This document shows positions 758-45,123 of a stretch of 45,212 nucleotides of DNA, in pieces (positions within the stretch are counted from its first letter, which is position 1; every line of letters begins with the position of its first letter). Location: NCBI GenBank assembly GCA_003152215.1, contig PLZP01000029.1, forward strand, positions 73,913-119,124, given 5' to 3'. A model generated the notes under the pieces. It did no database searches and was not told where the DNA came from. It saw only the letters and a list, made by a program, of their open reading frames with translations. Made by a program: the position numbers and the translations under genes. Origin of the DNA: Acidimicrobiaceae bacterium (GTDB taxonomy: Bacteria; Actinomycetota; Acidimicrobiia; Acidimicrobiales; RAAP-2).

Positions 758-924
758 GGGCCGGTGGGGATCGAACCCACGACCGAGGGATTATGAGGTG
801 GGAGCAAACGGTCGGAGTGGTCTGATGGCGTCGGATTGGTCCGAAATTCAATGAACTCGCTGTCCGGTGGTGTTGGATTTGTCCGGTGGTGTCGGAGTGG
901 TATGTGAGATGAAACGTGGGATTT
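758..924 (-). repeat. Array repeat R1 (tRNA 3' fragment 758-797 + iteron module)
   Basis: Exact 40-bp match to tRNA 7923-7962 followed by GGTC..GGTCTGATGGCGTCGGATT..GTCCGGTGGTGTTGGATTTGTCCGGTGGTGTCGGAGTGGTATGTGAGATGAAACGTGGGATTT. Confidence 0.92.
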
Positions 925-1060
925 CTGATCGATGCGAATGTTGCTTTCGTTTCCAAATTCAGACCGACGAGGACTGGATTGTCCGCGACGATGAGGCAGG
1001 ATGACATCGATGACGACCAGGAACCAATTGCGGAACACAGAGCGCCATAAAGTGTCCTTC

Positions 1061-1645
1061 ATGAGCAAGCTTTCGTTCTCGCCGGTCCCCGATACCGGGC
1101 AAGCGAAAGCATATGAAGTGTTGGTCTCGGCGTTCACGGACGATCCTGTTGAGCGTTGGCTCTATCCAGAATTGCCGCAGTACCTCGCGCACTTCCCACA
1201 GTTCCTGGCGACATTCGGTGGTGCGGCCTTCGATACTGGGACCGTTTGGTGCCTGGGCGACTTCTCGGCTGTCGCCCTCTGGTTGCCCCCCGAAGTAGGA
1301 GCGGACGGCGACGCGATCGGTGCATTGCTAGCCGAGACAGTGTCATCGGAAAAGCACGATGACACCTTCGCTGTTCTCGAACAGATGGACGCCGCCCACC
1401 CTACGTACGCGCATTGGTACCTACCGTGGTTCGGGGTCAATCCTCCTTTGCAGGGGCAGGGGTTGGGCGGTGAATTAATGGCGCACTGTCTCGGCATCGT
1501 CAACGCAGATCATCTCCCCACCTATCTCGAGACCCCCAGTCCGCGAACCATTCCTTTTTACGAACGACACGGATTCGAGGTCACGGGCGTTGCGCAGTCA
1601 GGACGTTGTCCGCCAATCACATTCATGCTCCGAGACGCTGCCTGA
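1061..1645 (+). CDS. GNAT-family N-acetyltransferase (cassette cargo; upstream start at 1001 possible)
   Basis: MSKLSFSPVPDTGQAKAYEVLVSAFTDDPVERWLYP...GVNPPLQGQGLGGELMAHCL...TYLETPSPRTIPFYERHGFEV: GNAT motif A (QGQGLGG) and YERHGF motif. Confidence 0.85.
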   Translation: MSKLSFSPVPDTGQAKAYEVLVSAFTDDPVERWLYPELPQYLAHFPQFLATFGGAAFDTGTVWCLGDFSAVALWLPPEVGADGDAIGALLAETVSSEKHDDTFAVLEQMDAAHPTYAHWYLPWFGVNPPLQGQGLGGELMAHCLGIVNADHLPTYLETPSPRTIPFYERHGFEVTGVAQSGRCPPITFMLRDAA

Positions 1646-1720: not shown

Positions 1721-1890
1721 TAGGGCCGGTGGGGATCGAACCCACGACCGAGGGATTATGAGGTGGAAGCAAACGGTTGGAATGGTCCGGTGGCGTCGGT
1801 TTGGTCCGAGTTTCACTGCCACCGTTATCCGGTGGTGTCAGATTCGTCCGGTGGTGTCAGTTTGGTTTGCGGGATGAAACGTGGGATTTT
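1721..1890 (-). repeat. Array repeat R2
   Basis: Exact 40-bp tRNA fragment at 1723-1762 followed by iteron module ending GGGATGAAACGTGGGATTTT. Confidence 0.92.
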
Positions 1891-1951: not shown

Positions 1952-3247
1952 TCAACCAAAATAGTTTGGTGCGGAGACTGCCGACCACAGTGAATCGTCC
2001 CAGTGCTCGATCAACGAAAGCAGGGGACCATGACCATCGTCATTGGGATACGAACCAACTGCATAGCAACTTGAGGATGTCACACAGGTGACTCCACTTA
2101 GCGAAATGTTGACCGGAGTTGTCGACAACGGGGGCTTCACATTTGTCCAGGTTGAGCCTCGCCAACTATCAATGATCGAATGTCCGCCCGAATCCAGACC
2201 ATCAAGTCCCGTGGCGAAGCAAAGTTTGGTGGTCGCGCACGACACGGAATTGAGAGAGTCATCAGGTAATGGAGCCTTGGGATCGGCCACGACGCCCCAC
2301 GTCGATCCGTTCCACTTTTCAATCAGCGAGTGGTATCCGGAAGATGAAAAAGAATCATTGTTGTAATCCCCGTCCGCAAAACACATGTGAGCATTCGCGC
2401 AACTGACGCTCGCAAGTGTGAGGTTGCCCGTTCCGGGAGAAGGTGAGGAAACCACCTTCCAAAGTGTTCCGTTCCAACGTTCGATGCCAGCGAATTGTCG
2501 GTTATTCATGAGGGCGAATTCGCCGACGGCGAAACAGTCAGTGGCAGCAAGACAAGTTACCGCGTTGAGCTCGTTGATGAATGCGTCGGTCACGGCGAAA
2601 TTTGGCGAAGGCACGATGGACCACTTCCTGCCATCCCATTGCTCGATGAGAGTACTCGTGGGACCCTTCCCAATCGCGTAGTAGCCCACGGCCGTGCAGT
2701 ATCTCGAACTCAGACAACTTACGCCTTGAAGACGAGCGAACGTTGTCGGCCAAGCGTCAACGATCTTCCAAGACTTTCCGTTCCACGCTTCGGTGATCTT
2801 CCGCCAGCCATGGCCTTCAATCAAATTTTGACCCACCGCAATGCAGAATCTCTTGGTTACGCAACTCACGGATTCGAGTTGGTTTTGGCCCGAAGAAGGG
2901 TTTGGAGAATGGACCAATGTCCAGGTAGACCCGCTTTTTTGTTCAATGAGCGTCTCTATCGTCGCGTACGAACTTGTTCTGTACGCGCCGACGGCCATAC
3001 AGAATTTAGAGCCGACACACGAGACTGAAGTGAGGTAGTTCGAATTGCAAGTGTTGCTAGTGCACGAAGACGAAGACACGTCCGGTCCAGTAGATGATCC
3101 CGCGGCCTGATCGACCAGGAAGAATCCCCACGAAAGTGACGCAACGACGACTGTGGCCACAACACTAAGGAATGTCCGGCGCCGAGCCGATTTATGGATC
3201 AGGGCCACAATTCTCCGTCCTCGATTGCGCTCGACCGTCACTCGCAA
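1952..3247 (-). CDS. Secreted protein with seven ~50-aa Cys-containing repeats (putative beta-propeller)
   Basis: Signal-like N-terminus (RRTFLSVVATVVVASLSWGFFLVDQAAG); seven repeats of LxSVSCxxxxxCxAVG...IExWNGxxWxxVxSP. Confidence 0.75.
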   Translation of the reverse strand: MRVTVERNRGRRIVALIHKSARRRTFLSVVATVVVASLSWGFFLVDQAAGSSTGPDVSSSSCTSNTCNSNYLTSVSCVGSKFCMAVGAYRTSSYATIETLIEQKSGSTWTLVHSPNPSSGQNQLESVSCVTKRFCIAVGQNLIEGHGWRKITEAWNGKSWKIVDAWPTTFARLQGVSCLSSRYCTAVGYYAIGKGPTSTLIEQWDGRKWSIVPSPNFAVTDAFINELNAVTCLAATDCFAVGEFALMNNRQFAGIERWNGTLWKVVSSPSPGTGNLTLASVSCANAHMCFADGDYNNDSFSSSGYHSLIEKWNGSTWGVVADPKAPLPDDSLNSVSCATTKLCFATGLDGLDSGGHSIIDSWRGSTWTNVKPPLSTTPVNISLSGVTCVTSSSCYAVGSYPNDDGHGPLLSLIEHWDDSLWSAVSAPNYFG

Positions 3248-3409: not shown

Positions 3410-3578
3410 TAGGGACGGTGGGGATCGAACCCACGACCGAGGGATTATGAGGTGGGAGCAGTCGGTCGAAGTGGTCCCGTGGCGTCGGATTGGTCCGAAA
3501 AACTCTGAGGTCTTCGTCCGGTGGTGTCGGTTTGGTCCGGTGGAGTCGGTTTGGTATGTGGGATGAAACGTGGGATTT
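3410..3578 (-). repeat. Array repeat R3
   Basis: tRNA fragment with a single mismatch (GGGACGG) at 3412-3451 plus iteron module. Confidence 0.92.
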
Positions 3579-3990: not shown

Positions 3991-4217
3991 GACTCCTCCA
4001 TTTCGAGCTACTCACTCACTGTATAGATTGCGGGAGGCGCCGGCGCTAGAGACCGAAGTCCCACATGTTTCAGCTCGTAAGTCCGAAAGACGGCACAGAC
4101 CAGACGTTTGTGGCCGGCCCAAGCAAGGGGATCCTCGTCTGGGTTGAGCCATTGGCAAGAGGGAATACTCCGGCTGCGGAGACTTAGGTGCTCGACCTAA
4201 TTGAACGTACCGTCATC

Positions 4218-4293
4218 GGGCCGAGAGGTGGGAGCAACCCGTCGGCCAGGTCCGGTGGTGTCGGATTGGTTTGTGGGATGAAACGTGGGATTT
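4218..4293 (-). repeat. Array repeat R4, degenerate (most of the tRNA fragment and part of the iterons deleted)
   Basis: GGGCCGAGAGGTGGGAGCAACCCGTCGGCCAGGTCCGGTGGTGTCGGATTGGTTTGTGGGATGAAACGTGGGATTT. Confidence 0.85.
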
Positions 4294-4461
4294 ATGTGCG
4301 CAACTTTGAAGCGTGATCGAAAATCACGCAACGTGCGAGAGATCGATTGAACTCATGACCTATTACAACCGACGGGTCTGAAGCATTGGGTCTCTGCTCG
4401 CCCAGGATCCTTCGTGGTAACACCCCTGTTGCTCGTCACGGTCGCCACGTACTATGCACCG

Positions 4462-5154
4462 ATGAGTTGGCAAGGGATTTCTTCGCGTTTGGCCGTGACT
4501 GCGCTCCTGAGCACCGCCATTTGCGCGTCCACGTTCGTTGCGACCGCTTCGGCCCAGGGTTCATTAAATGTCACGTGCGTCGCATCGAGCGCGACCCAGT
4601 GCGTTGTGACGATTCCCCTCGTTTCGAACATGAATGTAGATGTCGTTGTCACGTTGCCCGCCAACAAGGGCTTCTCGTTGAATCTTTTTGGCGGCACACC
4701 AGGCTCGGCTCCCTCGTACACAAGTCTGAACAACGGTTACTGGAGCGGAGCGGGAACTCCGTGGACGTGCTGCCTACTCCAGACAGGTGGTACCGAGCCA
4801 GCCGGTGCGGTGTCGACTCTGACCTTCGCAATCACGCCCCTGACGTCAGGTACTACCACGACCGTTCCGGCGAAGCAGCCGAAAAAACCGGCAGTGCTCA
4901 ACCTGAGTTTTACGCCAAGCAGCTTCGCGCTCAGCGCGACGGACAAGTCTCAACTCCAAGCGCTGGCGAGAGAACTCAGAACAGGGGCGAAGGTGACGAT
5001 TACGGGTTACGCACCTTCCAATCCGAGTCTCGCGCGAAATCGAGCGCTCTCAACAGCGGACTACCTCTACGCCAGAGTCAGGGTTGACTGGAGGGTTGTC
5101 GCCATAAGTACCCGTTCGCTAAACCGAGTCACGGTAACCACCACCGCGCTTTGA
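4462..5154 (+). CDS. Secreted protein with OmpA-like C-terminal domain (alternative start 4414)
   Basis: Signal peptide-like MSWQGISSRLAVTALLSTAICASTFVATASAQ; C-terminus FALSATDKSQLQALARELRTGAKVTITGYAPSNPSLARNRALSTADYLYARV resembles OmpA-like. Confidence 0.65.
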   Translation: MSWQGISSRLAVTALLSTAICASTFVATASAQGSLNVTCVASSATQCVVTIPLVSNMNVDVVVTLPANKGFSLNLFGGTPGSAPSYTSLNNGYWSGAGTPWTCCLLQTGGTEPAGAVSTLTFAITPLTSGTTTTVPAKQPKKPAVLNLSFTPSSFALSATDKSQLQALARELRTGAKVTITGYAPSNPSLARNRALSTADYLYARVRVDWRVVAISTRSLNRVTVTTTAL

Positions 5155-5182
5155 TCTTGCGTCGTTGCCTATGACATGTTGG

Positions 5183-5351
5183 TAGGGCCGGTGGGGATCG
5201 AACCCACGACCGAGGGATTATGAGGTGGATGCAATCGGTCGAAATGGTCCGGTGGTGTCGGTTTGGTCCGAGAATTGCAGAAATTCTGTCCGGTGGTGTC
5301 GGTTTGGTCCGGTGACGTCGGAATGGTATGTGGGATGAAACGTGGGATTTT
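5183..5351 (-). repeat. Array repeat R5
   Basis: Exact 40-bp tRNA fragment 5185-5224 plus iteron module. Confidence 0.92.
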
Positions 5352-5429
5352 CATGTCGCTATTCCTGCAACTACGGAGCGCGATTCACGTCAGTGACCAG
5401 AAGTCATTACGACGTGGGAGGATGCGGCG

Positions 5430-6248
5430 ATGGAATCACAAGACTCGATTGATGTGCCCGGCGCATCTCTCTATTACAAGTCGAGAGGTTCGGGCCCCGT
5501 CCTACTTATCATTCAGGGCGGTGCGGCTGATGCGGATGGGTCCGATGCCCTCGCAACTCACTTAGAAAGTGACTTCACGATAGTGAGTTATGACAGACGG
5601 GGTCTCTCGCGAAGTGTCCTCAAGCCAGGTGCGCCACCCGCTGACGTCAGAAGGCACACTCAGGATGCATCAATCATTCTGGCGACAGTCACATCAGAGC
5701 CGGCCTTCGTCTTTGGCGTCAGCATTGGTGGACTAATTGGACTTGATCTGGTCACAACCCACCCGAATCAGATACTCACGCTCGTAGCTCATGAGCCTCC
5801 GCTAAAGCAGTTGCTCCCACCGGACGAATTTGAAGAGGCGCTTCATGAGCAAGAGGAAGTTGAGGTCGCATTTAGAAACGAAGGGGTGAGAGCCGCAATG
5901 ATGAAGTTCCTTCAGCTCTCGGGCGTTGACTTTGGTGATAGAGAAGCGGATGCTCCCGCGCCCCAACTCTCGCCCCACATTGCAGACAACCTACAGTTCT
6001 TCTTGACGAACGATGCTCCAGCAGTGCGGCAGTATCAAATCGACCTGTCACTTCTTGAAGAGGTGAGGTCCAAAGTAATTCCCTCCGCAGGAGAGACTTC
6101 CACTGCCAACTGGCCCAACCACTGTGCATCAAGGTTGGCAGAGAAGATGCGTATCGATCTTGCGCGTTTCCCCGGTGGACATAATGTCTACGGAAGTCGA
6201 CCACGTGGAGTGGCGGACAAATTGCGCGTGTTACTCCGAACTGACTAA
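5430..6248 (+). CDS. Alpha/beta hydrolase
   Basis: PVLLIIQGGAADADGSDAL...IVSYDRRGLSRS...FVFGVSIGGLIGLDL (nucleophile elbow GVSIGG)...FPGGHN. Confidence 0.85.
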   Translation: MESQDSIDVPGASLYYKSRGSGPVLLIIQGGAADADGSDALATHLESDFTIVSYDRRGLSRSVLKPGAPPADVRRHTQDASIILATVTSEPAFVFGVSIGGLIGLDLVTTHPNQILTLVAHEPPLKQLLPPDEFEEALHEQEEVEVAFRNEGVRAAMMKFLQLSGVDFGDREADAPAPQLSPHIADNLQFFLTNDAPAVRQYQIDLSLLEEVRSKVIPSAGETSTANWPNHCASRLAEKMRIDLARFPGGHNVYGSRPRGVADKLRVLLRTD

Positions 6249-6337
6249 TTCAACTGCAAGACCAGTTCAGAATCAACAGATTCGCGGATTCAAAATGGCA
6301 CGAATCGGTACTAACAACTTCGGTGAGTCAATGCTGG

Positions 6338-6505
6338 TAGGGCCGGTGGGGATCGAACCCACGACCGAGGGATTATGAGGTGAGGGCAATCGGTCGGTCT
6401 GGTCCGGTGGTGTTGGATTCGTCCGGAAATCGCTGGGTTCTTCGTCCGGTGGTGTCGGATTGGTCCGGTGGTGTCGGTTTGGTCTGTGGGATGAAATGTG
6501 GGATT
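6338..6505 (-). repeat. Array repeat R6
   Basis: Exact 40-bp tRNA fragment 6340-6379 plus iteron module. Confidence 0.92.
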
Positions 6506-6571
6506 ACTGCGAAAGATTGGGCGTTCAAATCAAGCCTCAATGACGTCACATCTCACAACTACGATTTAGTC

Positions 6572-6703
6572 ATGTCACAGACTCAATCAACTCCACCCAA
6601 GAAGTCGACGGCTCTTGACGCACTCGATGAATCGGACCGTGTTTGGTTGGCTCAACGTCTGGTCGAATACCGGGAATTGCTCGACTTTCTCCACTCACAT
6701 TGA
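6572..6703 (+). CDS. Short antitoxin-like protein (43 aa) preceding a Doc-like toxin
   Basis: MSQTQSTPPKKSTALDALDESDRVWLAQRLVEYRELLDFLHSH; its TGA stop overlaps a TTG start of the downstream toxin (TTGA). Confidence 0.55.
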   Translation: MSQTQSTPPKKSTALDALDESDRVWLAQRLVEYRELLDFLHSH

Positions 6704-7110
6704 ACCTTCCTAGTCTCGAACTTATCGTTGCGTTCAACGCTTCGGTCCGCCACAATGACGAGTGGTTCGACGAGGCCGATGATCTCGACCGCATTGTGCG
6801 AATTCTCGACAACCTTCAGACTGCAATCGATCCCATAGTCGCCGCGGCAGTTGCAACGAGTCGAATCACTCGTGCGCAGGCATTCACCGAGGGAAACAAG
6901 AGAACAGCATTGCTGGTTGGTCGATGGATTCTCGATCGCAATGATTTCGATGGAGGCTCAATGATTCCTCCGGACGATTTCGAATTGGCGAACCTGCTTC
7001 TAGATGCCGCTCGAGGCGCGGATACGGATGAGAAGGTTGTTGCACTCTTCAAATTTCGCCGAGCCCCAATTGGGCCGGTGGGGATCGAACCCACGACCGA
7101 GGGATTATGA
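6700..7110 (+). CDS. Death-on-curing (Doc/Fic-family) toxin
   Basis: ITRAQAFTEGNKRTALLVGRWILDRN (Fic/Doc-type xxFxxGNKRTA motif), PPDDFELANLLLDAARG; C-terminal GPVGIEPTTEGL* comes from repeat R7. Confidence 0.75.
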   Translation: MNLPSLELIVAFNASVRHNDEWFDEADDLDRIVRILDNLQTAIDPIVAAAVATSRITRAQAFTEGNKRTALLVGRWILDRNDFDGGSMIPPDDFELANLLLDAARGADTDEKVVALFKFRRAPIGPVGIEPTTEGL

Positions 7111-7220
7111 GGTGGGAGCAAACGGTCGGACTGGTCTGTTGGCGTCGGACTGGTCCGGGATTCAATGAGCTCCCTGTCCGGTGATGTCGACATGGTATGT
7201 GGGATGAAACGTGGGATTTT
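7072..7220 (-). repeat. Array repeat R7 (module one iteron shorter)
   Basis: Exact 40-bp tRNA fragment 7072-7111 plus shortened iteron module ending GTGGGATGAAACGTGGGATTTT. Confidence 0.92.
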
Positions 7221-7278: not shown

Positions 7279-7857
7279 TTAGTTTTCGGCAAACTTCTTT
7301 AGCGCTCGTAGATATGAATTTGTGGCACTCGTTTGTATGGACCGAGCGATCGGACCCGAGAGCCGAACCATTGAGCTACCCGGACGAGAAAATCCAGAAA
7401 CTTCAAACACAACTCTTCCCGTGGTCAATTGACTGACAACGAAGGATTCTTCTCCGCACTCTGGATGTCCAAGTAGCGTTCCATAGGCAAATCCAAACCT
7501 ATTCGGCTCTTCAATAATATGAACGATTCGACACGGCGCAGCCATTGAAATTACTCCCGGTCCTAACTCCAAAATAAGCGATTCGCCAAGACGCACGGGC
7601 GGTGCCTGCGGATAGATCTTGACCCGAGGGATGCGGTGTGCCTGCCAGGAGTGCAATCCCGCAACCGCACGGTTAAATACTTCCGTTTTTGGGGATAGTT
7701 CGATCCCATAGTGATGGATTCGAAAGCCAGTCGGAGATGTGCCTTTGATCGACGTTCCGACTTCGGGATAATTAGGTTCAAGATGAGAGATCGAGTTGAG
7801 CAAAGCTTCCATGGCGCGTGTATTTGATGGTCGAATCAATATCAAATTGGTATCCAA
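7279..7857 (-). CDS. DUF1990 family protein
   Basis: FNRAVAGLHSWQAHRIPRVKIYP...CRIVHIIEEPNRFGFAYGTLLGHPECGEESFVVSQL...VVFEVSGFSRPGSSMVRLSGPIARSIQ, DUF1990 signature. Confidence 0.85.
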   Translation of the reverse strand: MDTNLILIRPSNTRAMEALLNSISHLEPNYPEVGTSIKGTSPTGFRIHHYGIELSPKTEVFNRAVAGLHSWQAHRIPRVKIYPQAPPVRLGESLILELGPGVISMAAPCRIVHIIEEPNRFGFAYGTLLGHPECGEESFVVSQLTTGRVVFEVSGFSRPGSSMVRLSGPIARSIQTSATNSYLRALKKFAEN

Positions 7858-7920
7858 TCAGAATTCAAAGTCCCACATCGTGAATCCATGTGACATCGAG
7901 TTGAATCACTGATTGGATAG

Positions 7921-7993
7921 TAGGGCCGGTGGGGATCGAACCCACGACCGAGGGATTATGAGTCCCCTGCTCTAACCACTGAGCTACGGCCCT
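7921..7993 (-). tRNA. tRNA with CAT anticodon (Met elongator or Ile2), intact
   Basis: Reverse complement AGGGCCGTAGCTCAGTGGTTAGAGCAGGGGACTCATAATCCCTCGGTCGTGGGTTCGATCCCCACCGGCCCTA; full cloverleaf, loop CTCATAA. Confidence 0.95.
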
Positions 7994-40593: not shown

Positions 40594-40666
40594 GGGGGTA
40601 TAGCTCAGCTGGTAGAGCACTTGCATGGCATGCAAGGGGTCCGGGGTTCGAATCCCCGTACCTCCA
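40594..40666 (+). tRNA. tRNA-Ala(GGC)
   Basis: GGGGGTATAGCTCAGCTGGTAGAGCACTTGCATGGCATGCAAGGGGTCCGGGGTTCGAATCCCCGTACCTCCA. Confidence 0.96.
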
Positions 40667-40847
40667 CAATTGAAGTTCCTGGTAATCGGCTCACCATCTT
40701 TCTGACTGCGTGAACCCAGCTCACGTGGTTGCATGCAATTACTTGCAATGCAAGAGGTCAACCGTGAGCGAAGCCGATGCATGGATCCACGTTTCCCAAA
40801 CGAGCGTGTTCACCATTCCGTCCACCGATTCCCTCGAGATCATGAAT

Positions 40848-40868
40848 CTTCAGCAGATACTTCAGCAG
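40848..40868. repeat. Left-end paired direct repeat CTTCAGCAGATACTTCAGCAG
   Basis: CTTCAGCA-N4-CTTCAGCAG; counterpart at 44955-44975. Confidence 0.6.
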
Positions 40869-40908
40869 TTGGTCGCAAAAGATTGACTTCTGCCAGGTCA
40901 CTATCATC

Positions 40909-43398
40909 ATGGCGATGGCCGCCGATTCGTTTGTCGAGTTAGTCCAGTCAGCAGCACTTGCCGAACTAGCAGGTGGTCCGATAGGTATCCTCGAGTTGGC
41001 AACTCGTCTTCAACGCCGCGGTGTTCTCGCTCATCTTCAAGGCATTGACGATGAGCAGTTGGCACTCGAACTCGATGAGATTCTCCTTGATTGTGACGGC
41101 ATCTGGACAACCGATGACGGAACTGTTGCTTCAACCGCGGCCTTACTCGACGGGGTGAGTTTTAGTCACCGAATGACGAGTTCGGAACTCGAACGTGAGA
41201 TCATCGACGCACTTCCCGACTTGATCGCTCTTGATTTTGACATCGCCGGTTCGCTGGCCCTTGAGAGCGGAGGGCAACTCGAGTTCTCCTTCGCGGACGA
41301 TCCAGAGTTAAATGAACTCGGCTTCTTCTCCGGACCGGCGGGCTGGCTCCGCGAGATTCGCTCACCCGGGACGATTGTAGTGACTCGATCAGGAAAGGTC
41401 GTGTCGATTCAGACCGGTGGAGCGTTAGGCCGAGGTGACGCTGAAGCAGCTGCGCTACGCCAAGCATTCGATGATCGACATGTCGAAGGCATCTTGAGTG
41501 ATTCGACGGAAGTTGTACTGGACGCACTATGTCGCAACCCGTCGCTCTTTCGCTCGCCGGTCATTCCCGTGAGCGAGCTGTTCGAGCGAGCCGGAATCGA
41601 GTGTCGCGGAGAGTGGGTGGCGCGCCAAGGAGAGTCTGCAGAGCATCCGGGAGTGATATACCGCGAACGACTGATCAACGGGTTGAGCGAGGAATACGGT
41701 TTCGAGAGTTGCTGCACTGAGGCTTTTGAACACGTACTCCTCGAGTGGCTGAATTTCGTCCTAGATCAAACTGCTCTCACTGACGTTCGAGGCGTGGCCC
41801 GCGCTCTCGCGCACGGAGGGGTCGCACCGGCGTTCGTCGACTACCTCCTTAGTGACGATGACCTCGAATCAGAACTTCTGACCGAGTTCGCATCTCATCT
41901 GGTCCCATTGAGTGGGAAGCTCTCGGCCCCTGGTCACTACCTACTCGCACTTCACGCCGAGCGCGGTGGTCGCACGATCGAAGCCGAGCGAGAGCTCCAG
42001 GCCGCGCTCTCTGCCGACTCTGGTTTTGAAGCCGCACTCCTCGAACTGTCCCGGTACGCAGCGGATCGAGGTGATGCCCGCCTTGCAATCTCTCTCTTGC
42101 GACGTTCCGGCGCTTTGGAGAGTGACCCGGAACTCGAGTACTTGAGATTGCGACTTGGAGTTCCAGCCATCGGAGTCGGGCGTAACGATCCTTGCCCGTG
42201 CGGTTCGGAGAGAAAATTCAAGTTGTGTTGCGTCAACGGACGCCGCCAGTCAATTGAAGACCGCGCCGACTGGCTTTGCCACAAGGTCACGCTGTTCTCA
42301 CTTCGACCGCAGAACCAATGGCGCCTAGAAGAGCTTCTCGACATTGCAACCGACGCCGCTCGCGCGGAATCGCCCGATTCGTTCTTCTCCGTTTTGGTCA
42401 GCCTCGCAGCCTTTGACCGCGACGCGCTGGAAGAGTTCATCGAAGCGAGGGGTGTTTTGTTGGCTGAGGACGAGCTCGCACTCGCACGCACGTGGCGGGC
42501 TTCGCCGCCGACGTTGTGGCACGTCGTCGCCGTTGATCCGGGGGCGTCGGTCCAATTGTTCGACACCCGAGGCGGCGCGAGTGTGGTCGTCAAGGACCAC
42601 TCCGCGTCGCAGAGCCTGCACGTCGGCGACTACGTGTTCGTTCGAGTCGTGCCCACCGAATCGAGCTTCCTGTTCACCGGAGAGATCGTTCGAGTGCCGT
42701 TAGCGCATCGGGCATCACTGTTAGAACTTCTCGGCGCTGCAGCAGAAATGCGGGACCTTGCTGCGTGGGTTGGCAGATTGTTCGCACCGATCCAGTTAGC
42801 GAACTACGAAGGAGACGACGTCGTGCTGTGCCGCGCAGTCTTGGCTCCGGTGACGACTTCTTGGGAGGACTTCTCGGATACGTTGGATCGACTTTTTGAA
42901 GAGTCCGACGACGGCCAGTGGACAGAGTTCGTTGAGATCAGCGGCACCAACGTGGTGAGGTGCCTTCTTCGCCGCGAACTCGAGACCCTCGTGGTCGAAA
43001 CGAATTCGATCGAACGCTTTGATCGAATTCTCAAAGTCCTGCACGAAGAAGTTGGTGATCTAGAGGTCATCGACGAGGTGCGCACCGATCTCTCTTCAAC
43101 CGCCGACTTGGTGACTCGAGGTGGGCACAATACGGAGCCTTCAACAGACAGTGACGTCCCAGCCGAGGTTCTTAAAGCGGTTCGTGATCTCATGCGCGCG
43201 AAAGAGGACGCGTGGCTTGACGAGTCGATTCCGGCGCTCGGGGGCCTTACCCCTCGTCGAGCAGCGGCGGACCCCACTCGTCGTGAAGACCTCGCCGCAC
43301 TGCTCAATGAATTCGACCGCCGCGGCGCGGTCGCTCCTCCCGCGATGACCTTCGACGTAACAAGGCTCCGCGAGCAATTAGGTGTCTTCAACTCATAG
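40909..43398 (+). CDS. Large SEC-C motif protein of unknown function
   Basis: IGVGRNDPCPCGSERKFKLCC SEC-C zinc-binding motif; C-terminal ALGGLTPRRAAADPTRREDLAALL. Confidence 0.85.
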   Translation: MAMAADSFVELVQSAALAELAGGPIGILELATRLQRRGVLAHLQGIDDEQLALELDEILLDCDGIWTTDDGTVASTAALLDGVSFSHRMTSSELEREIIDALPDLIALDFDIAGSLALESGGQLEFSFADDPELNELGFFSGPAGWLREIRSPGTIVVTRSGKVVSIQTGGALGRGDAEAAALRQAFDDRHVEGILSDSTEVVLDALCRNPSLFRSPVIPVSELFERAGIECRGEWVARQGESAEHPGVIYRERLINGLSEEYGFESCCTEAFEHVLLEWLNFVLDQTALTDVRGVARALAHGGVAPAFVDYLLSDDDLESELLTEFASHLVPLSGKLSAPGHYLLALHAERGGRTIEAERELQAALSADSGFEAALLELSRYAADRGDARLAISLLRRSGALESDPELEYLRLRLGVPAIGVGRNDPCPCGSERKFKLCCVNGRRQSIEDRADWLCHKVTLFSLRPQNQWRLEELLDIATDAARAESPDSFFSVLVSLAAFDRDALEEFIEARGVLLAEDELALARTWRASPPTLWHVVAVDPGASVQLFDTRGGASVVVKDHSASQSLHVGDYVFVRVVPTESSFLFTGEIVRVPLAHRASLLELLGAAAEMRDLAAWVGRLFAPIQLANYEGDDVVLCRAVLAPVTTSWEDFSDTLDRLFEESDDGQWTEFVEISGTNVVRCLLRRELETLVVETNSIERFDRILKVLHEEVGDLEVIDEVRTDLSSTADLVTRGGHNTEPSTDSDVPAEVLKAVRDLMRAKEDAWLDESIPALGGLTPRRAAADPTRREDLAALLNEFDRRGAVAPPAMTFDVTRLREQLGVFNS

Positions 43399-43482
43399 AA
43401 CGACTATGTCCGGCACGATCAGCCTCGTGTTGCAGCTCTTCCAACGTGAAGTAGCTGCGAGTAGATCGAGGTGTTTCGCCAG

Positions 43483-44733
43483 TCACGGTCCCAGAGTGCC
43501 GACCGGTATGACCATGACACCATCGGGCCTCTGATATGCGTAGCCCGTGGCCGTCACAACCGCCAGGAACGCCGGAGCACCGCAGGTGGACTGATCAATT
43601 CGGTTAGAGAATGTGAGGAGGCTTCTCGCACCTTGGTCGATTTGATTGCTACCGAGTTTCACTTCAATGCCAGCCCAGCAGCCATCGTTCCGCTCCACGA
43701 TGGCGTCGACTTCAAGTCCGGTGTTGTCGCGGTAATGGAATATCTTGGCGTCATGGAGTTGGGCGTAGACGCGCAGATCCCTCACAACGAGGCTCTCGAA
43801 AAGGAAGCCGAGGAAGTTGAGATCGCTGAGTAGTTTCTGCGGACCGGCCCCCAATGCGGCCGCGGCTAGGCAGGGATCAATGAAGTGTCGTTTCGCAGCG
43901 ATGCGCATGCTGGAACGAGACCTGAGCCGTGGCGCCCATGCCGGCTGATCCTCGATTATCCAGAGCCGCTCAAGAGCGGATAGGTATTCTGGAACAGTCT
44001 TGCGGGCGACGGGCTCATCTTCGCCTGCCGTGTCGGCAGCAATTACGGTGGCAGCTACCTGAGTGGCGACATTGCGCGCCAACGACCTTAGGACGCGCCT
44101 CACCTTGTTGGGATCGCGGATGACTCCGTCAACTCGGTTGATGTCGGTTCGGGCTATCTCTTCGAGATAGTTGCCAAGTGCCAGTTGGGCGTCGACCACC
44201 GGAAGGTTGTGTAGGGCTGGCCATCCACCAGTGCAAATGAACTCCGCGATCTCGGAGATGGTGAAGTTGGAATTCGCCGGCGACGGCAGCTGGCCGTCCA
44301 GCAAGTTGCCTAGTGAGACTTCTCCGAAACTTCGGCCCATTTCAAAAAGCGTCATTGGTCGCAGTCTCACTCGAGCCACGCGTCCGGCACCCGTGTGTCG
44401 AGTGACGTCGTCGCTGGGAGCGGCAGAACCGGTGAGAATGAATTGGCCCGGCAGCCGGCGCTCATCAACTTCTCGGCGCACCTTGTTCCAGATTTCAGGG
44501 ACGAACTGCCACTCGTCGATCAATCGCGGCGTTGAACCAGTGAGGATTAGTGCCGGATCAATCTCAGCTGCGGTACGAGCATTCAGGTCCGAGTCGAGGT
44601 CTACTTCGCTAGCCGCCTGTTGGCGCGCCGTTTCGGTCTTTCCGACTGCTTTGGGACCTTCAAGTACGACCGCACCCATGGCCTTGAGTTGCCGTGTAAG
44701 TTCCCTGTCAACGATCCTCAATTGGTAACTCAT
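43483..44733 (-). CDS. AAA ATPase with DUF4143
   Basis: GAVVLEGPKAVGKTETARQ (P-loop), LIDEWQFVPEIWNKVRREVD, GQFILTGSA, VDAIVERNDGCWAGIEVKLG. Confidence 0.9.
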   Translation of the reverse strand: MSYQLRIVDRELTRQLKAMGAVVLEGPKAVGKTETARQQAASEVDLDSDLNARTAAEIDPALILTGSTPRLIDEWQFVPEIWNKVRREVDERRLPGQFILTGSAAPSDDVTRHTGAGRVARVRLRPMTLFEMGRSFGEVSLGNLLDGQLPSPANSNFTISEIAEFICTGGWPALHNLPVVDAQLALGNYLEEIARTDINRVDGVIRDPNKVRRVLRSLARNVATQVAATVIAADTAGEDEPVARKTVPEYLSALERLWIIEDQPAWAPRLRSRSSMRIAAKRHFIDPCLAAAALGAGPQKLLSDLNFLGFLFESLVVRDLRVYAQLHDAKIFHYRDNTGLEVDAIVERNDGCWAGIEVKLGSNQIDQGARSLLTFSNRIDQSTCGAPAFLAVVTATGYAYQRPDGVMVIPVGTLGP

Positions 44734-44954
44734 TATCACTCCATTACGGGCAAATTTAAGTTGCCACTCGGTCCGGCAACTTCCCGCAACACCCAGATTA
44801 TAGCGCTTATAACATCCAGATAGTAATCTCTATAGCACCCGTTTTACAACTGATTCAGCGGCCACTTTAGAATGCACGATTCTGAAACCTGATCTTGACT
44901 CACAACCCAGCCCGAGGCATTTTTGACTCTGGGTACGGCGCGCTGAGGGTTCAA

Positions 44955-44975
44955 CTTCAGCATTTGCTTCAGCAG
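44955..44975. repeat. Right-end paired direct repeat CTTCAGCATTTGCTTCAGCAG
   Basis: Same CTTCAGCA-N4-CTTCAGCAG architecture as 40848-40868. Confidence 0.6.
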
Positions 44976-45085
44976 ATGAGCTGAATTCGAGTGAATCTAG
45001 ATGAACGAAGATGAATTGAAGGCCCTGATAACAACTCTGATATGGACCGATTTGAACGCGTCTGAACGGGTCTTGAGCCGATGGG

Positions 45086-45123
45086 ATGCAAGGGGTCCGG
45101 GGTTCGAATCCCCGTACCTCCAC
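45086..45123 (+). repeat. Duplicated 3' end of tRNA-Ala (attR-like)
   Basis: 38-bp exact copy of 40630-40667 with no 5' tRNA half. Confidence 0.93.

What the first reader, a model, noticed from the sequence alone, without database searches (positions are those of the whole stretch)
798..924. Module is built from 18-19 bp iterons (GGTCCGGTGGTGTCGGTTT) with variable copy number
Seen: after the tRNA fragment each module contains tandem units of the form GGTCCGGTGGTGTCGGTTT. R1, R2, R3, R5 and R6 have about three full units plus a partial one; R7 has about two; R4 about one. Unit lengths vary between 18 and 19 bp, and module lengths are not multiples of three relative to each other, so this is not a conserved reading frame. 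Inference: these are protein-binding sites (recombinase arm-type or directionality-factor sites), with copy number changing by slippage or recombination.
Basis: partly seen in the sequence, partly recalled or inferred. Interest (0 to 1): 0.8.

Follow-up and report, generated by a model that had tools for sequence, protein, structure and literature searches.

The report
Recombination arms of tRNA-anchored gene cassettes
A soil actinobacterium keeps a row of small swappable gene packets behind a methionine tRNA gene, and the repeated 19-letter units are part of the shared DNA 'handle' that a site-specific recombinase most likely grips to insert each packet; the packets carry no recombinase of their own.

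Summary
The iterons are real: 3 units in R1, R2, R3, R5, R6, 2 in R7, 1 in R4. They lie at fixed offsets from a tRNA-Met 3' half, not in a free tandem run. They form one flank ('arm') of an integration site. The window shows the right end of a ~21 kb array (16 module copies) of 0.5-3 kb gene cassettes downstream of tRNA-Met(CAT). The same module occurs in about 40% of congeners searched (peat Acidimicrobiaceae MAGs), in arrays of up to ~18. Array-free relatives mostly show one plain tRNA-Met copy. Homologous cassettes in different species carry their arms with them and change neighbours exactly at the tRNA core. Identical arms occur on a different core, tRNA-Lys. There, integrase-bearing elements place a pair of 12-bp-period direct repeats at +102 and -66 from the core. 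The 21-bp 'tail' after the iterons is such a pair, at +104. I therefore read module = core + iteron spacer + arm-type pair, i.e. half of an attP site. No integrase lies in the Met arrays examined, and none with matching arm repeats was found: the cassettes look mobilised in trans. No conserved ORF or RNA structure. Which protein binds iterons versus tail is inferred. New variant of known tRNA-targeted additive-island cassettes.

The parts
7920..7993 (-). Intact tRNA-Met(CAT): the target; its 3' half (7923-7962) is the core repeated in each module
   Evidence: ARAGORN; mostly single plain copy in array-free congeners
758..797 (.). R1 core: 40-bp tRNA-Met 3' half (anticodon loop to acceptor end, reverse strand)
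   Evidence: 0 mismatches to the intact tRNA
798..924 (+). R1 arm: linker, iterons A (820), B (862), C (881), tail 903-923
903..923 (+). R1 tail: two direct repeats TGTGAGATGAAA/CGTGGGATT, 12-bp period; proposed integrase arm-type pair
1723..1889 (+). R2: core 1723-1762, iterons 1785/1827/1846, tail 1868-1888
3412..3578 (+). R3: core 3412-3451, iterons 3474/3516/3535, tail 3557-3577
4216..4293 (+). R4: truncated module, core lost, one iteron 4250, tail 4272-4292
5185..5350 (+). R5: core 5185-5224, iterons 5247/5288/5307, tail 5329-5349
   Evidence: module plus following cassette also in G039, G029, G051 with the same edges
5430..6248 (+). Cassette gene, alpha/beta hydrolase
   Evidence: Pfam; cassette 5182-6379 shared with three other species
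6340..6506 (+). R6: core 6340-6379, iterons 6402/6444/6463, tail 6485-6505
7072..7219 (+). R7: core 7072-7111, two iterons 7134/7176, tail 7198-7218
1001..1645 (+). Cassette gene, GNAT acetyltransferase
   Evidence: Pfam
1952..3247 (-). Cassette ORF, 431 aa, no Pfam family
4414..5154 (+). Cassette ORF with weak OmpA-like C-terminus (below the Pfam cut-off)
   Evidence: Pfam
6643..7110 (+). Cassette gene, Fic/Doc family
   Evidence: Pfam
7282..7857 (-). Cassette gene next to the tRNA, DUF1990
   Evidence: Pfam

Best explanation
Each module is one arm (P arm) plus the core of an attachment site of a tyrosine-integrase system that targets tRNA genes. A circular cassette would carry attP = [tRNA-Met 3' half] + [iteron spacer] + [12-bp-period tail pair]. 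An integrase supplied in trans would recombine the core with the intact tRNA-Met, restoring the tRNA and pushing older cassettes outwards, so the array grows at the tRNA end. Steps supported by sequence: the unit boundaries, arms moving with cassettes, polarity, one arm type on two cores, and the common geometry with integrase-bearing tRNA-Lys elements. Steps inferred: the tail is bound by the integrase's N-terminal arm-binding domain; the iterons are bound by an accessory or directionality protein (or further integrase protomers) that shapes the spacer; the integrase is provided in trans by an unidentified element; the cassettes still move.
For: Array-free congeners mostly have one tRNA-Met copy with plain flanks (38 of 52 searched have a match; 35 of these have one copy), i.e. 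empty sites. Divergence of the tRNA half rises with distance from the intact tRNA: own array rho 0.72, p 0.002; nine loci pooled rho 0.47, p 2e-4. Homologous cassettes in different species start 2-3 bp outside the core and end at the end of the next core (+40) when one copy abuts the tRNA gene. The arm beside a shared cassette matches like the cassette (median 0.87), while arms beyond the next core are at background or below (0.69; background 0.77), and the 150 bp on the other side of the core are unrelated in all but two pairs. The same arms follow tRNA-Lys 3' halves in other contigs and genomes. Integrase genes of that tRNA-Lys site (PF00589, with an HTH_17 gene upstream in the own genome) abut intact tRNA-Lys(TTT) in several congeners. 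Their elements carry TTGGCTACAT or TGGCTAGAC pairs, period 12, at -65 to -68 and +102; cassette arms carry TGTGGGAT or ATGAGGCCT pairs, period 12, at about +104 to +108 in full-length forms. The tail pair is >=7/9 self-matching in 87% of 102 modules against 1% shuffled.
Against: No integrase with the GTGGGAT-type arm pair was found: none in the Met-array loci, none among 58 integrase loci of nine genomes, none by an exact pattern next to tRNA-Met in 99 congeners; two hits next to tRNA-Lys fragments have no integrase beside them. The P' side is not conserved in the cassettes. Two array-bearing genomes, 93-94% complete by estimate, have only three PF00589 genes each, two of them XerC/D-like. All genomes are draft MAGs. 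Nothing shows present-day excision.
Confidence: 0.77

Rival explanations
1. The iterons, not the tail, are the integrase arm-type sites, and the tail binds the directionality factor.
For: Iterons are strongly conserved and at fixed offsets; ICEMlSymR7A integrase uses five ~10-bp arm-type sites with consensus TGKTGGTATC, all needed for integration (PMC11963761), which superficially resembles GGTGGTGTC.
Against: Iteron number falls to one in 9 of 85 modules while the tail persists. Integrase-bearing elements have a tail-like pair on both sides of the core and no GTCCGGTG iterons in the examples read.
Confidence: 0.35
2. The array is shaped by homologous recombination between ~170-bp repeats; the modules are passive relics of old insertions.
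For: No integrase in the Met arrays; some cores decayed. Long direct repeats recombine readily (general knowledge).
Against: Switches coincide with the core edge rather than spreading through the 170 bp, and arms stay linked to the cassette on one side only. Young copies keep perfect cores and arms.
Confidence: 0.15
3. An integron-like system whose sites recombine as folded single strands (attC-like).
For: Array of mostly small cassettes, growth from one end, YoeB toxin cassettes in relatives, as in large integrons.
Against: No excess folding and no covariation; core is a tRNA fragment; no integrase found at the array.
Confidence: 0.03
4. The iterons are replication-initiator or regulator sites (plasmid-type iterons or an operator array for cassette expression).
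For: Direct repeats of about two helical turns are typical of initiator and regulator sites (general knowledge).
Against: No replication initiator was identified among the own-genome cassette ORFs scanned; modules lie between cassettes whose genes point either way; linkage to tRNA cores is near constant.
Confidence: 0.05

Closest known systems
Additive flexible genomic islands at tRNA genes (Alteromonas PMC4119200; Ca. Methylopumilus PMC10872708; Ca. Actinomarinales, also Actinobacteria, PMC7771536)
   Same: [quoted passage not shown] content varies between close relatives
   Different: The passages read describe only the tRNA repeat; here each repeat carries a conserved ~127-bp arm with iterons and a tail, shared between two tRNA targets
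Tandem CIME/IME accretion at att sites and tRNA-targeted islands (Islander PMC4383910; accretion in the IME review PMC5704250)
   Same: Elements without an integrase bounded by att sites and mobilisable in trans; tandem growth
   Different: Mostly one-gene cassettes of 0.5-3 kb in arrays of up to ~18, with a standardised one-sided arm
attP of tyrosine integrases with arm-type sites (lambda; ICEMlSymR7A, PMC11963761)
   Same: Core plus flanking short direct-repeat protein sites and directionality-factor sites
   Different: In the cassettes only one side is conserved; repeat sequence differs between classes at fixed geometry; binding untested
Integrons and superintegrons
   Same: Polar arrays of small cassettes including toxin genes
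   Different: No attC folding, tRNA core, no linked intI

Membership tests
tRNA-targeted integrative elements / additive island cassettes | Intact tRNA at one end and a partial tRNA repeat at the other end of each unit | tested here: met
tRNA-targeted integrative elements / additive island cassettes | Empty site in relatives | tested here: met
   mostly one plain tRNA-Met copy in array-free congeners
tRNA-targeted integrative elements (autonomous) | Own or linked tyrosine integrase | tested here: not met
   none in or beside the Met arrays examined; integrases only at the related tRNA-Lys sites
attP P arm of a tyrosine integrase | Arm-type direct repeats at fixed distance from the core | tested here: met
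attP P arm of a tyrosine integrase | Arm-type sites on both sides of the core | tested here: not met
   no conserved P' motif in cassettes; present at -65 to -68 in integrase-bearing tRNA-Lys elements
attP P arm of a tyrosine integrase | Binding by integrase or directionality factor and need for recombination | not testable with these tools
   needs protein
Integron attC | Imperfect inverted repeat folding into a hairpin with structure conserved over sequence | tested here: not met
Integron | intI next to the array | tested here: not met
   no tyrosine recombinase in the array; genes sampled beyond the tRNAs include DNA primase and an ABC transporter
Tycheposon | tRNA boundary with element-borne tyrosine recombinase | tested here: not met
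   tRNA-Met boundary yes, recombinase no; the defining paper was not read
Plasmid replication iterons | Linked initiator gene | tested here: not met
   no initiator family in the cassette ORFs scanned

The most novel reading that the evidence does not exclude
A standardised, integron-like cassette-capture system of double-stranded sites: integrase-less one-gene cassettes share an exchangeable recombination arm that can be joined to different tRNA cores (Met, Lys) and are assembled in polar arrays by a dedicated trans-acting integrase not yet identified.
Probability: 0.35. Interest if true: 0.8.

Novelty: new variant of a known kind. Interest (0 to 1): 0.62.

Why it matters
Arrays of tRNA-tagged cassettes are known, but how cassettes without an integrase are recognised has been unclear. 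Here the recognition element can be read from the sequence: a fixed-geometry arm whose repeat sequence defines classes and which is shared by two tRNA targets. That gives a searchable signature for such arrays, predicts what the missing integrase should recognise (pairs of GTGGGAT, 12-bp period), and offers a natural series of arms with one, two and three iterons for testing what the iterons do.

Tried and rejected
Structured RNA or attC-like folding. Conserved ORF. A gene ending in HYGK that recurs beside tRNA-Met cores looked like a candidate recombinase but is a YoeB toxin. Integrase beside tRNA-Met in congeners: none. Candidate families by co-occurrence: the 397-aa integrase of G000, G017 and G028 sits at tRNA-Ile(GAT); a ~44%-identical group sits at tRNA-Ala or tRNA-Val. 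Integrase with GTGGGAT pairs on the P' side: pattern search gave two tRNA-Lys relics whose neighbours are metabolic or transport genes, not integrases. Viral contigs: the only tail hit lies in an AT-rich coding region and no arm matched, so it is a chance match. Genome collection: apart from one Peribacteria hit that matches only the tail, the tail is found in Actinobacteria MAGs, nearly all labelled Acidimicrobiaceae.

Full report
OBSERVATION. The iterons are real and far above chance: 18 matches to GTCCGGTGGTGTCGG (<=2 mismatches) against 0.23 expected, 16 of them in the modules, and one 21-bp tail TGTGGGATGAAACGTGGGATT per module, 7 against 0.01 expected. The units are not a free tandem run: unit A begins 22 bp after the tRNA fragment, a half unit and a spacer follow, B starts 41-42 bp after A, C 19 bp after B, and the tail begins 22 bp after the start of the last unit. 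Over 85 distinct tRNA-Met modules of the genus, A is at +22 in 78 and the tail at +103-105 (62 modules), +84-86 (10) or +43-44 (9), i.e. three, two or one unit.

CONTEXT. The window is the right end of an array on contig C23: 16 module copies from C23:60996 to 81110, ending at the intact tRNA-Met(CAT) at window 7920-7993. Modules are 0.6-3.1 kb apart, leaving one or a few genes each: GNAT, alpha/beta hydrolase, Fic, DUF1990, Na/Ca exchanger, MBL-like ODP, TetR, glyoxalase, a lipoprotein repeat family and unknowns. The core is the tRNA 3' half from the anticodon loop to the end. By record titles the bearers are peat Acidimicrobiaceae MAGs.

DISTRIBUTION. A sequence-only model of the arm hits 40 of 148 relatives: 38 in the same genus with E-values down to 1e-32, and two outside it only at E ~5e-4. 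Many arrays lie at the same tRNA-Met beside tRNA-Asn. Of 52 module-free congeners, 38 have a match to the core and 35 of these have exactly one copy; in the loci read it is a plain intact gene.

UNIT OF MOVEMENT. Among 61 cross-species alignments of array DNA, about 20 start within 5 bp outside a core in both genomes, and those in which one partner abuts the tRNA gene end at the last base of the core. For example the window R5 cassette (alpha/beta hydrolase) is third from the tRNA here, first in G051, and also present in G039 and G029. The arm next to a shared cassette is as similar as the cassette (median 0.87), while arms beyond the next core are not (0.69; random pairs 0.77), and sequence on the other side of the core is unrelated in all but two pairs. 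So the unit is arm + cassette + core. Because the core is present in all modules, alignments would tend to stop there in any case; the one-sided arm linkage is the stronger point. tRNA-half mismatches increase with distance from the tRNA (own array rho 0.72, p 0.002; pooled rho 0.47, p 2e-4), so growth is at the tRNA end.

ARMS ON TWO CORES AND THE GEOMETRY ARGUMENT. The own genome also holds the module on C120 behind a tRNA-Lys 3' half, directly after a tyrosine integrase gene (PF00589, with an HTH_17 gene upstream). In congeners related integrases abut intact tRNA-Lys(TTT), and the same arms recur on tRNA-Lys cores. Complete integrase-bearing tRNA-Lys elements (G037, and C120:3064-8255 here) carry a pair of direct repeats with a 12-bp period on each side: TTGGCTACAT at -66/-68 and +102. 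Cassette arms carry a pair of the same period at about +104 to +108 in full-length forms but of other sequence: TGTGGGAT (this finding) or ATGAGGCCT (a second class, with its own iterons). I take the pair as the integrase arm-type site and the iterons as the spacer's protein sites. This is inference from position; no binding was tested. In the cassettes the P' side shows no such pair (1 of 95).

MISSING INTEGRASE. The Met-array loci examined contain no tyrosine recombinase. G017 and G034, with arrays, have only three PF00589 genes each, two of them XerC/D-like and the third at tRNA-Ile or tRNA-Ala. No integrase with GTGGGAT pairs was found. Either it is supplied by an element not in these assemblies, or it is lost and some arrays are relics. 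MAG incompleteness limits this.

ALTERNATIVES. No conserved frame and no folding signal argue against coding, RNA and attC-like readings. Homologous recombination between repeats can contribute but does not predict one-sided arm linkage.

RELATION TO KNOWN. Cassettes at tRNA genes tagged by partial tRNA repeats are described as additive flexible genomic islands, including in another actinobacterial order, Ca. Actinomarinales (PMC7771536; PMC4119200; PMC10872708). The passages read mention only the tRNA repeat. The paper library is partial, so prior description of such arms elsewhere is not excluded. Arm-type sites of ~10 bp needed for integration are documented for ICEMlSymR7A (PMC11963761). 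I call this a new variant of a known kind.

Noticed in passing
window 40594-45123: tRNA-Ala(GGC) at 40594-40667 and a 43-bp copy of its 3' end at 45081-45123 bound a second insertion without an integrase inside, carrying an 829-aa SEC-C protein and a DUF4143/AAA protein that matches candidate defence family PDC-S01.
   Followed up: partly
L046 2903-4333 (own contig C120): The integrase reading frame runs on through the tRNA-Lys fragment and the iterons, which is probably an artefact of a neighbouring insertion.
   Followed up: no
L157, L105, L096, L118 (tRNA-Lys sites): A second arm class with its own iterons and tail ATGAGGCCTAAAATGAGGCCT is interspersed with the first at tRNA-Lys.
   Followed up: partly
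L081 15223, L097 13435, L099 8793, L104 509, L116 9838: A diverged arm subclass on tRNA-Met cores (GGTCTTGTGGTGTCG-like units, tail GTGGGATTTTCCGTGGGATT).
   Followed up: no
L104 3850-4158, L190 1061-1480 and similar genes in L082, L097, L099, L116, L177: YoeB-type toxin gene ends directly against the tRNA-Met core in several genomes; two were confirmed by Pfam.
   Followed up: partly
L177 (G020): Two tRNA-Met cores 775 bp apart, the outer one followed by a different, unclassified arm.
   Followed up: no
L047 9969-10045 (own contig C117): Isolated fragment of the arm without a tRNA core, a possible relic.
   Followed up: no
table: Integrases about 44% identical to the C120 one, several abutting tRNA-Ala or tRNA-Val; many are listed with one in-frame stop inside the aligned span, which may only be alignment past the true stop.
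   Followed up: no
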